Source of the DNA: Streptomonospora salina
Lineage (GTDB): Bacteria; Actinomycetota; Actinomycetes; Streptosporangiales; Streptosporangiaceae
Reading direction: 5' to 3'
NCBI RefSeq assembly: GCF_014204715.1
Contig: NZ_JACHLY010000001.1
Coordinates: forward strand, 3,928,501-3,992,500
Length of the DNA stretch: 64,000 nt
Below the pieces are notes generated by a model. It was not told the origin of the DNA. It saw only the letters and a list, made by a program, of their open reading frames with translations, and did no database searches. The position numbers and the translations under genes are program-made. Positions 30,914-33,761 of this stretch are shown here, piece by piece. Positions within the stretch are counted from its first letter, which is position 1. Every line of letters begins with the position of its first letter.

Positions 30914-31859
30914 CTAACGGGGCGGTGGTGTGTCCCCGATCTGGGCGAGGATGTTCTCGGCGCCCTGGCCGAGGAGGGTGACTGCGGCGCGTTTGCCGAG
31001 GTCGGCGGGGGCGCTGCGTATCCCGGTCTGGGTGGTGCGGATGACGGCTGTGCCGTCGAGGCCGGTGACCTGGGCGGTTATGCGGAGACGGTCGCCTTCG
31101 GCGGTGGCGAGGGCGCCGACGGGCACGCTGCATCCGCCGTGCAGCTCGGCGAGCATGGCGCGTTCGGCGGTGACGGCGGCCGCGGTCGCGTCGTCGTGCA
31201 CAGCGGCGAGCAGCTCCTGCAGGCCGGTGTCGTTCTCGCGGATCTGGACGGCGATGGCGCCCTGTGCGGGCGACGGCGGGAATGTGCGGGAGTCGAGTGC
31301 TTCAGTGATCTCCTCGGTGAGGTCGAGTCGGTGCAGCCCGGCGGCGGCGAGGATGGTGCCGGCCAGTCCCGTTTCCCGGCTGCGGCGCAGTCGCGGGGGA
31401 CGTTGCCGCGGATCGGCACGGTGGTGGTGTCGGGGCGCAGCGCGAGGAGTTGGGCGATGCGGCGAGGGGAGCCGGTGCCGATTCGTGCTCCGGTGGGGAG
31501 GTCGGCGAGGGTGGTTCCGCAGAGGGCGTCGCGGGGGTCGGCGCGGTGGGGGACGGCGGCGATGACCGTGCCGGGGGTGCCGGGGGTGGGCGCGGTGGCG
31601 AGGTCTTTGAGGCTGTGCACGGCGATGTCGACTTCTCCGGCGAGGAGGGCGTCTTCGAGGGCGGTTGCGAAGACGCTGACGGTGGACGTGCCGAGTTCGG
31701 TGAGGCTGGTTGTGCGGTCTTTATCTCCCGAGGTCATCACCGTGTGCTGTTTCCATGTGATGTCGGGGCGGGCGGTGCGGAGGGGGCGGTCACTTCGGCG
31801 CCCATGGCTTTGGCGAGGTGGCTGCCGCGGGAGCCGACACGAATCGTTCGAGCTGACAC
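30914..31859 (-). pseudogene. hemC: Hydroxymethylbilane synthase (HemC) paralogue, two frameshifts
   Basis: Reading across frames gives a near full-length HemC: IRVGSRGSHLAKAMGAEV, then RPLRTARPDITWKQHTVMTS, LAGEVDIAVHSLKDLATAPT, GARIGTGSPRRIAQLLALRP, ETGLAGTILAAAGLHRLDL and AMLAELHGGCSVPVGALATA (cofactor Cys retained). One base is missing near 31791 and another near 31398. The start is probably GTG 31859. It is clearly divergent from housekeeping HemC (LAKAMGAEV for LALAQT), so it is a second, specialised copy rather than the haem gene. Decayed or mis-assembled. Confidence 0.8.
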
Positions 31860-32337: not shown

Positions 32338-33456
32338 CTACTTCAGGGCCACGCGGGTGATGGGCGTATCCGGGGAGTCCAGCCACACCCGCTGCCCGTC
32401 GGCGTCCACGGTCAGCCCGAACCGGTCGACCTCGGGGCGGCCGCGGTCCAGCCACCACCGGTAGGCGGTCTCGACCTCGTCCCACAGCCGCCGCGGCCCC
32501 GACTGGTGCACGCGCACTTCCGGGCTCTCGGCCACAGCCGCGGCCCACGAGCGGTCGGTGATCCCGTACAGCCAGGCCGTGCCCTCGTGCACGGTGTGCG
32601 TGCAGGCGTCCACCAGCAGGCCCAGCAGCAGGCCGGTACCGCCGTAGGCGGGATCGAAGACCTCGTCGAGGGTGAGGTCCGAGCCGGTGACGGCGCCGGG
32701 CCAGTCGGTGACGTACTCCTCGTGGACCGGCCATTTTCGACGGTGCGAGCGAGCCTTCATGAACTCCGCCGGCCCCGTGAGCCGACCGCCGGCGGTTCCG
32801 TCGTCGCCGACGACCAGACGGGCGATGGCGTCCTGGCGACTGTAGTCGGTGCCCCACGGCGCCACGATCACCCCGCCCGGCCGGGTCTGGGCGATCCAGG
32901 CCGGCGGGATGGACCGCACACCCGCGGTGGCGATGACTCGGTCATACGGTGCACCCGGCGCGTGGCCCGCCAGCCCGTCGCCGACCACGACCGTGGGCGC
33001 GAAGCCGGCGGCCGCCAGCCGGGCGCGGGCTTGATCGGCCAGGACCTCGTCGACCTCCACGGTGGTGACGGCCCGGTCGCCGAGCCGGCAGCTGAGCAGG
33101 CCGGCGTTCCACCCGGTTCCGGTGCCGATTTCCAGCGCCCGCATGCCCGGCTCGACGTCGAGGTCGCGCAGCATCGCCGCGACGATGCTCGGCATCGAGG
33201 AGCTGGAGGTGTAGACACCCGGACCGGTCGGAGCTCCGTCGTCGTGCTGCACGGTCAGGGGCACGTTCTCCTCGGCCCACTGCGCCCACGCTTCGTACTC
33301 GGTGCGGCGATCGACGGGCGTGCTCGCCTCCCCGGCGGAGAAGGGCCAGATGACGTCGGGCAGGAAAGCGCCGCGCGGCACGGCGCGGAAGGCGCCGCGC
33401 CACGCGGGGGCCATGCGGCCCGATTCGAGGAGCAGCTGCTCCAGCTCAGGTGTCAC
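32338..33456 (-). CDS. PIMT-like (protein-L-isoaspartate O-methyltransferase family) enzyme, likely RiPP-modifying
   Basis: 372 aa. The N-terminal substrate region reads WRGAFRAVPRGAFLPDVIWP, the PIMT hallmark SSSSMPSIVAAMLRDL precedes motif I ALEIGTGTGWNAGLLSCRL, then VTTVEVDEVLADQARARL and PYDRVIATAGVRSIPPAWIA. A ~150-residue C-terminal extension (WPVHEEYVTDWPGAVTGSDL, then LDEVFDPAYGGTGLLLGLL) goes beyond repair PIMTs (~210 aa), as in PIMT homologues that modify RiPPs. The GTG 33456 start overlaps the stop of a 34-codon peptide gene as GTGA. A longer frame to 33678 runs through that peptide and is rejected. Candidate imiditide-type modifying enzyme. Confidence 0.8.
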   Translation of the reverse strand: MTPELEQLLLESGRMAPAWRGAFRAVPRGAFLPDVIWPFSAGEASTPVDRRTEYEAWAQWAEENVPLTVQHDDGAPTGPGVYTSSSSMPSIVAAMLRDLDVEPGMRALEIGTGTGWNAGLLSCRLGDRAVTTVEVDEVLADQARARLAAAGFAPTVVVGDGLAGHAPGAPYDRVIATAGVRSIPPAWIAQTRPGGVIVAPWGTDYSRQDAIARLVVGDDGTAGGRLTGPAEFMKARSHRRKWPVHEEYVTDWPGAVTGSDLTLDEVFDPAYGGTGLLLGLLVDACTHTVHEGTAWLYGITDRSWAAAVAESPEVRVHQSGPRRLWDEVETAYRWWLDRGRPEVDRFGLTVDADGQRVWLDSPDTPITRVALK

Positions 33457-33557
33457 TTCTCGTGCCGACCGGGCGGGGGGCCGCCGTCGGGGCTGGGCGG
33501 CGGCGGAGGCGGCGGGGGTTTGGGTTGGGGCTGCGGAGGGCCTTCGTGGCGCGCCAT
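33453..33557 (-). CDS. Proline-rich 34-aa peptide, candidate RiPP precursor
   Basis: The ORF encodes MARHEGPPQPQPK, then a run of eight prolines, SPDGG and PPPGRHEK. It has a good ribosome binding site (AAGGGAG about 9 nt before ATG 33557) and its stop overlaps the methyltransferase start by 4 nt, so the two are translated together. The only Asp (residue 24) is followed by Gly, the pair most prone to succinimide formation and the preferred PIMT target. Composition is extreme (about half proline). Whether it is made is untested; a leader role for coupling only is the alternative. Confidence 0.6.
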   Translation of the reverse strand: MARHEGPPQPQPKPPPPPPPPSPDGGPPPGRHEK

Positions 33558-33761
33558 CCTGGTCTCCCTTCGTCCGGGGGCGGCTCCCTTTCCACGGTAG
33601 CCCGGTGATCACCTGCTGTAATCGGATCTGGCCGGGAGTGGACATCCGGGTAGGGGCAGGGCCGCCCTTGGCCCCCACCCGAATCGTCGGCGGCCTGCCG
33701 GTCCTGCCGGTCGCAGACGTGGTCGACGACCGTGCGGGCCGCGGCTTCCGCGCTCAGCCGC

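What the first reader, a model, noticed from the sequence alone, without database searches (positions are those of the whole stretch)
32338..33557. Two-gene candidate RiPP locus: Asp-Gly proline-rich peptide coupled to a PIMT-like methyltransferase
Seen: a 34-codon ORF with a good ribosome binding site ends in a 4-nt GTGA overlap with a PIMT-family enzyme that has a ~150-residue C-terminal extension. The peptide is about half proline and has a single Asp, followed by Gly. Known: PIMT homologues in imiditide, graspetide and some lanthipeptide clusters methylate Asp in a precursor and leave a stable aspartimide. Inference: this is a minimal imiditide-like pair whose product is an Asp24-Gly25 aspartimide in a polyproline scaffold. 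The peptide is short enough to be missed by routine annotation.
Basis: partly seen in the sequence, partly recalled or inferred. Interest (0 to 1): 0.75.

Follow-up and report, generated by a model that had tools for sequence, protein, structure and literature searches.

The report
Two-gene pamtide/imiditide peptide locus
A very short, proline-rich gene and the methyltransferase gene overlapping it form a genuine pair that recurs in related bacteria and very probably makes a peptide with one chemically altered aspartate; it is a new, unusually proline-rich member of a recently described class (type I pamtides, also called imiditides), not a new kind of system.

Summary
On the minus strand a 34-codon ORF (33453-33557) ends in a 4-nt GTGA overlap with a 372-residue PIMT-type methyltransferase (32338-33456) carrying the extra C-terminal domain and WXXXGXP motif reported for RiPP enzymes. 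The ORF is real: the window and five relatives keep it ungapped, with changes concentrated at third codon positions. A peptide-only profile gave 20 fetched loci (9 were its own rows); all 20 have a methyltransferase, or pieces of one, directly downstream. No other neighbour is shared with the five relatives compared, so the unit is two genes, the architecture published in 2023 as type I pamtides/imiditides. Added here: in 25 of 28 peptides with a C-terminal basic box, one Asp sits exactly six residues before the box's Gly. The residue after the core Asp is Gly in 21 of 36 peptides, otherwise Ser, Thr, Lys or Asn, never Pro, although Pro is abundant; Pro would block an aspartimide. A control (other Asp: Pro follows 5 of 64) makes that sign only modest. 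Asp24 is the likely target; Gly25 is favoured, not required; the polyproline stretch is a variable spacer. End product (aspartimide or isoaspartate) and function stay open. New member of a known kind.

The parts
33453..33557 (-). precursor peptide gene, 34 aa, ATG start, TGA stop
   Evidence: Ungapped conservation and third-position changes in six genomes; peptide profile finds related ORFs before a methyltransferase in other genomes
33564..33568 (-). ribosome-binding site GGGAG (7-11 nt before the ATG)
   Evidence: sequence
33483..33488 (-). codons of Asp24 (33486-33488) and Gly25 (33483-33485): predicted modification site
   Evidence: Asp in fixed register in 25 of 28 peptides with the C-terminal box; n+1 never Pro in 36
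33456..33470 (-). C-terminal box Gly-Arg-His-Glu-Lys, predicted enzyme-docking handle
   Evidence: G-[RKQ]-[HR]-[EAG]-[KGE] pattern in 28 of 37 precursors; role inferred from the SpaA C-terminal substitution; for NmaA the last 5 residues were dispensable, the last 10 not
33453..33456 (-). 4-nt GTGA overlap of precursor stop and methyltransferase start
   Evidence: sequence; same 4-nt overlap in L009 and L010, a gap of about 5-20 nt in L022, L023, L024, L100 (enzyme starts extrapolated from tblastn)
32338..33456 (-). PIMT-family peptide aspartyl methyltransferase (PAMT), 372 aa, GTG start
   Evidence: model pLDDT 86.6, pTM 0.88
33112..33126 (-). SAM-binding motif GTGTG (residues 111-115; G111, G113, G115 invariant in 17 sequences)
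   Evidence: the GXGXG SAM site of PIMTs is named in the review's Figure 11 legend
32377..32754 (-). extra C-terminal domain, about residues 235-360 (limits approximate)
   Evidence: block pLDDT 60-93 over most of it; best Foldseek match 1dl5 T. maritima PIMT, whose two chains are the only listed PIMTs aligned over nearly the whole query
32434..32454 (-). WXXXGXP motif (W335, G339, P341)
   Evidence: all three invariant in 17 sequences; motif as described in PMC13001092

Best explanation
The locus is a two-gene type I pamtide (imiditide) cassette. The 34-residue precursor is translated and its stop codon overlaps the enzyme's start, so the enzyme is probably translated by coupling. The enzyme's extra C-terminal domain is inferred to grip the basic C-terminal box GRHEK, which places Asp24, six residues before the Gly of the box, in the active site. 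The side chain of Asp24 is methylated with S-adenosylmethionine, the backbone NH of Gly25 attacks the methyl ester and methanol leaves, giving an aspartimide (-18 Da) that then hydrolyses partly or wholly to isoaspartate/aspartate. The proline stretch is a variable spacer. SHOWN: the genes, their conservation, the linkage of precursor and enzyme across genomes, the enzyme family and a fold prediction, the register. INFERRED: docking, methylation, imide formation, end product, biological role.
For: Enzyme family, motif and extra domain. Selection on the ORF. Precursors compiled through the enzyme: 24 of 25 have the core Asp. Peptide-only profile: 36 places in 20 of 338 family genomes. Of 20 loci fetched, one per genome, 9 are places that supplied the profile; among all 20, 17 have a single enzyme match of 203 bits or more starting between 3 nt before and 29 nt after the precursor stop, and 3 (L124, L126, L130) have only broken or partial matches there; among the 11 that did not supply the profile the split is 8 and 3. 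Register D-x5-G-box in 25 of 28. Pro at n+1 in 0 of 36 but at n-1 in 26 of 36; with Pro placed at each peptide's own frequency, zero has chance 4.7e-5 over the 25 assigned by register, 1.2e-6 over all 36, 0.010 over 15 dissimilar representatives. No shared protein beyond the enzyme between the window (12 kb each side) and five relatives (about 9-10 kb each side; ORFs of 90 aa or more, 35% identity, E 1e-10). Own genome: no TIGR04187 match; the four LanC-like matches lie elsewhere, three of them within about 4 kb of other PIMT-like paralogues. Published precedent: SpaA/SpaM and NmaA/NmaM.
Against: No chemistry was observed. L025 (enzyme 53-54% identical) has the box but no Asp in register; its only Asp is at residue 10 in Lys-Asp-Met. 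L132 and L133 carry the box pattern with another Asp spacing. The core Asp of 11 of 36 peptides was assigned by hand. The Pro argument is weakened by a control: the other Asp residues of the same peptides are followed by Pro in only 5 of 64; at that rate zero of 36 has a chance of about 0.05 (my arithmetic). Gly25 is replaced in 15 of 36. For NmaA, removing the last 5 residues did not much affect modification, removing 10 did, so a five-residue handle is not general in the class. Net charge is about +1, whereas the review speaks of strong positive charges. The pair is patchy: the peptide profile matches 3 of 6 genomes of the genus and 20 of 338 of the family.
Confidence: 0.88

Rival explanations
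1. The short ORF is a regulatory upstream ORF: its run of eight prolines stalls ribosomes and sets translation of the methyltransferase, which acts on other proteins.
For: Eight consecutive Pro and a 4-nt overlap, which recurs in some more distant pairs such as L102. That polyproline stalls ribosomes is recalled knowledge.
Against: The conserved residues are Asp and the C-terminal box, not the Pro run; some relatives have little Pro (12-15% in L069, L101, L105). In many others the overlap is a gap, up to 32 nt.
Confidence: 0.05
2. The methyltransferase is a housekeeping isoaspartate repair enzyme and the ORF beside it is not its substrate.
For: PCMT-family fold and sequence.
Against: Extra C-terminal domain with WXXXGXP; patchy distribution; linkage with the precursor at all 20 loci fetched; PIMT-like paralogues near LanC-like genes in the same genome.
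Confidence: 0.03
3. Same cassette, but the functional end product is the isoaspartyl (beta-linked) peptide, and the aspartimide is only a short-lived intermediate (a variant of the best explanation, not exclusive of it).
For: SpaA was hydrolysed completely by 24 h and FcaA gave mainly isoAsp (review section); Gly at n+1 lowered aspartimide in NmaA. Fast imide formation and hydrolysis at Asp-Gly is recalled chemistry.
Against: NmaA was about half aspartimide after 40 h of expression; not testable by sequence.
Confidence: 0.55

Closest known systems
Type I pamtides / imiditides (SpaA-SpaM of Streptomyces sparsogenes, NmaA-NmaM of Nonomuraea maritima)
   Same: Two genes, short precursor (often unannotated) rich in Pro/Gly with a conserved Asp near Pro/Gly, charged termini, PIMT homologue with extra C-terminal domain and WXXXGXP
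   Different: 34 aa against about 45; 47% Pro against an average of 16.8%; one Asp only; net charge about +1; fixed D-x5-G-[RKQ]-[HR] register. I saw neither the published precursor logos nor the JACS 2023 paper, so this subgroup may already be in their data sets.
Type II pamtides / cysimiditides
   Same: Precursor plus PAMT pair
   Different: No CxxCxGxG zinc motif in the window peptide
Graspetide-associated methyltransferases (TIGR04188)
   Same: Best NCBIfam model for the enzyme (2.3e-94)
   Different: Below the model's cut-off (316.7 against 380 bits) and no TIGR04187 match in the genome
FxLD lanthipeptide methyltransferases (TIGR04364)
   Same: Shared PIMT core
   Different: 129.9 against a cut-off of 320 bits; no LanC-like match within about 260 kb

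Membership tests
Type I pamtide / imiditide | PIMT homologue with extra C-terminal domain (and WXXXGXP) | tested here: met
   criteria
Type I pamtide / imiditide | short precursor gene directly adjacent, with a conserved Asp near Pro/Gly | tested here: met
Type I pamtide / imiditide | two-gene cluster without another primary RiPP enzyme | tested here: met
   no shared neighbours with five relatives; Pfam on ten nearby ORFs: 8 with a match, none a RiPP enzyme, 2 without; no TIGR04187 match in the genome, LanC-like matches far away. Other RiPP enzyme families were not searched one by one.
Type I pamtide / imiditide | charged conserved residues at precursor termini | tested here: met
   N-terminal M-x-x-H-E-G and C-terminal G-R-H-E-K
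Type I pamtide / imiditide | enzyme converts the Asp to methyl ester/aspartimide/isoAsp | not testable with these tools
   needs expression and mass spectrometry
Type II pamtide / cysimiditide | CxxCxGxG-D-CxxCxGxG zinc motif in precursor | tested here: not met
   no Cys in the peptide
Graspetide cluster | ATP-grasp maturase of the TIGR04187 family with the methyltransferase | tested here: not met
   0 matches in the whole genome at E<=0.001; only this one model was tried
FxLD class lanthipeptide cluster | LanC-like cyclase beside the methyltransferase (feature recalled) | tested here: not met
   nearest LanC-like match about 260 kb away

The most novel reading that the evidence does not exclude
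This subgroup works by a molecular ruler: the C-terminal G-B-H-E-K box docks on the PAMT's extra domain and an Asp exactly six residues upstream is imidated, while the polyproline rod only spaces the box from an equally conserved N-terminal M-x-x-H-E-G end. Because both ends are under selection and no protease or transporter is shared around the cassette, the whole uncleaved peptide may act inside the producer or at its membrane, rather than as a trimmed, secreted natural product.
Probability: 0.22. Interest if true: 0.55.

Novelty: new member of a known kind. Interest (0 to 1): 0.4.

Why it matters
The review names the link from these peptides to biological function as the bigger open challenge. 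This locus supplies a compact member (34 aa, one Asp, a single possible site), a comparative set of relatives, a testable register between recognition box and modified Asp, and a natural exception (L025) that keeps the box but lacks the Asp in register. These make substrate recognition directly testable. The pair is easy to miss: on the plasmid record L113 the gene table lists the methyltransferase but not the 44-aa precursor ORF before it (that table is incomplete by its own description).

Tried and rejected
Spurious ORF from GC-rich sequence: rejected by conservation and third-position changes. N-terminal extension of the methyltransferase (446-aa ORF): rejected, stops in 4 of 5 relatives. 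Graspetide and FxLD lanthipeptide membership: rejected. Shared operon with the LysR gene upstream or with the oligopeptide transporter: not supported, no neighbour other than the enzyme is shared with the five relatives. Promoter conservation: an alignment of 140 nt upstream shows, by eye, only a short TAC-containing block in the closest genomes; not pursued. A strict Asp-Gly pair: rejected, n+1 varies. No complex of enzyme and peptide was predicted. Papers: PMC10787088 outline, sections 2.2, 2.3, 2.5 and passages; PMC13001092 outline, imiditide, enzyme and conclusion sections; PMC11048544 passages. The JACS 2023 imiditide paper is not held and no supplement was read, so I cannot say whether this very precursor is already listed. 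Searches of the held literature: (listings only). Recalled, from no call: Pro after Asp cannot form an aspartimide, and Gly/Ser favour it.

Counts and their limits: the 25 precursors are the distinct ones beside enzymes of 300 tblastn bits or more. Rows dropped as duplicates: L089, L090, L091, L092, L093, L050, L106, L108, L109, L111; for L108 this means that the precursor of the second enzyme of the G692 tandem was not itself counted. For L107 and L112 I chose the inner start; L024 failed the ribosome-site filter and was taken; L026 was given its GTG start. One search adds ten and two from plasmids. The profile used was built from Asp-bearing precursors, so Asp counts from that route lean to the reading; the enzyme route does not have this bias except that the first ORF choice gave one point for an Asp. 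A looser set (enzymes from 45% identity) gave 48 candidate precursors, 39 with some Asp-Gly and 9 without; two of the 9 (L015, L040) are doubtful ORF choices. mis-oriented three loci and its rows for them are void; one search replaces it. One search used a pattern that matched the N-terminus and crashed; one search replaces it.

Full report
OBSERVATION. A 34-codon ORF, MARHEGPPQPQPKPPPPPPPPSPDGGPPPGRHEK (33453-33557), has GGGAG upstream and ends in a GTGA overlap with a 372-residue methyltransferase. The enzyme matches PF01135 (6.7e-27) and, among NCBIfam models, best TIGR04188 (2.3e-94; 316.7 bits against a cut-off of 380).

THE SHORT ORF IS A GENE. Six genomes of the genus, the window's included, were searched. 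G003 and G004 have the orthologous enzyme at 65 and 64% identity, each with a 34-codon ORF in the same place. In the family, G053, G076 and G077 (60-62%) have it too. Across these six the ORF is ungapped; variable columns by codon position are 9, 13 and 29 of 33 each. Invariant residues include EGP, QP, PD, GP, PGR and EK, among them Asp24. The frame of the enzyme extended upstream is not kept: stops interrupt it in 4 of 5 relatives.

PRECURSOR AND ENZYME TRAVEL TOGETHER, WITHOUT OTHER GENES. ORF comparison (90 aa or more, 35% identity, E 1e-10) of 12 kb on each side of the window with 20-kb stretches from five relatives found no protein shared with the window apart from the enzyme (and a second copy of it in G076) and antisense ORFs over it; G003 and G004 share neighbours with each other, not with the window. 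A profile of 13 precursors, used without the enzyme, matched 36 places in 20 of 338 family genomes; ten of these genomes had supplied rows of the profile. Of 20 loci fetched, one per genome, nine are profile rows. In 17 of 20 a single enzyme match of 203 bits or more starts between 3 nt before and 29 nt after the precursor stop. The other three (L124, L126, L130) have only broken or partial enzyme matches there: pieces, a 5' part, or two ends with the middle lost. Among the 11 loci that are not profile rows the split is 8 and 3. So all 20 have an enzyme or pieces of one.

WHICH ASP. Through the enzyme (300 bits or more) 25 distinct precursors were compiled and 24 have a core Asp. With ten from the profile search and two plasmid examples the set is 37. 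A C-terminal box G-[RKQ]-[HR]-[EAG]-[KGE] occurs in 28, and in 25 of these an Asp lies exactly six residues before the Gly of the box. Exceptions: L025 (no Asp in register; its only Asp is at residue 10), L132 and L133 (other spacing). Of the nine without the box, four are from named Streptomycetaceae records (L049, L051, L113, L114); in seven of the nine a P-D-G lies twelve residues before the end (listing). At the residue after the core Asp, 36 peptides show Gly 21, Ser 8, Thr 4, Lys 2, Asn 1, Pro 0, whereas the residue before is Pro in 26 of 36. With Pro placed at each peptide's own frequency, zero Pro at n+1 has probability 4.7e-5 for the 25 assigned by register, 1.2e-6 for all 36 and 0.010 for 15 dissimilar representatives; the first two treat related sequences as independent. 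A control tempers this: the other Asp residues in these peptides are followed by Pro in only 5 of 64, and at that rate zero of 36 has a chance of about 0.05. An aspartimide needs the NH of residue n+1, which Pro lacks (recalled chemistry), so this is a modest, indirect sign of imide chemistry.

THE ENZYME. An AlphaFold model (17 sequences; pLDDT 86.6, pTM 0.88) has the PIMT fold followed by strand 255-259, a short helix 263-266, helix 273-281, four strands, helix 324-337 and two more strands. Apart from the short helix and the last two strands this is the beta-alpha-four beta-alpha order given for RiPP-associated enzymes in PMC10787088. Foldseek ranks 1dl5, the T. maritima PIMT with a C-terminal domain, first, aligned over nearly the whole query but with a loose superposition (TM 0.54 by query, rmsd about 8); the other listed PIMTs align over about 230-260 columns. 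W335, G339 and P341 give WXXXGXP, invariant in 17 sequences, as described for lasso, graspetide and imiditide enzymes.

NOT ANOTHER TESTED RiPP CLASS. The genome has no TIGR04187 match. Four LanC-like matches lie elsewhere, the nearest about 260 kb away, three of them within about 4 kb of other PIMT-like paralogues. Pfam on ten nearby ORFs shows LysR, a peptide-binding protein and two permeases, NUDIX, HD and two porphobilinogen deaminase pieces, and no match for two.

MECHANISM AND MEMBERSHIP. The sequence-level features of type I pamtides/imiditides that I tested are met: two genes, short precursor, conserved Asp near Pro/Gly, charged termini, PAMT with extra domain. The defining chemistry was not tested. 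By the published precedents the enzyme methylates Asp, an aspartimide forms, and it hydrolyses to isoAsp/Asp to a degree that differs between members. Replacing the last five residues of SpaA by Ala abolished modification, which fits the box here acting as docking handle; but NmaA tolerated loss of its last five residues and not of its last ten. Differences from the published average: 34 against about 45 residues, 47% against 16.8% Pro. The window peptide has one Asp and a charge of about +1. Pro is 34-47% in the nine closest precursors and 12-26% in 14 of the other 16 (L095 and L028 have 40 and 39%), so the polyproline part is best read as a spacer.

VERDICT. Real, well supported, and a new member of a known kind. 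The register and the absence of Pro at n+1 were derived here; whether the published supplementary logos already show them I could not check.

Noticed in passing
window 30914-31740, minus strand: Porphobilinogen deaminase (HemC) domains lie in separate ORFs in different frames (31078-31740 matches the N-terminal domain model, 30914-31201 the C-terminal one), so this copy looks disrupted.
   Followed up: partly
L025 (G013), just upstream of the enzyme: Natural precursor that keeps the MAKHEGP start and PGRHEK end but lacks the segment with the core Asp, beside an enzyme frame without stops.
   Followed up: partly
L026 (G144): Precursor whose N-terminal M-x-x-H-E-G end is replaced while the Asp and C-terminal box are intact.
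   Followed up: partly
genomes G104 and G692 (same family): Expanded sets: four and ten precursor matches per genome, including two precursor-enzyme pairs in tandem at G692:C1 550808-553340.
   Followed up: no
L124, L126, L130: Precursors followed by broken or partial methyltransferase genes, suggesting decay of the cassette; L124 also has a second PAMT match just upstream.
   Followed up: partly
L049 and L050 (Streptomyces specialis, one contig): Two pairs with the same precursor sequence in opposite orientation roughly 16 kb apart.
   Followed up: no
L113 (Streptomyces sp. HUAS 15-9 plasmid) and L114 (Embleya sp. NBC_00888 plasmid): Plasmid-borne pairs with P-D-G precursors ending in GKHRK / GKHKK; the precursors are absent from the listed gene tables, which are incomplete (for L114 no gene at all is listed in the stretch).
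   Followed up: partly
G000:C1 2408859, 2711656, 2714149, 4222345, 4304128: Five further PIMT-like core domains in the window's genome, four of them within about 4 kb of a LanC-like match, probably lanthipeptide clusters; two fuller paralogues lie at 2566335 and 2744441.
   Followed up: partly
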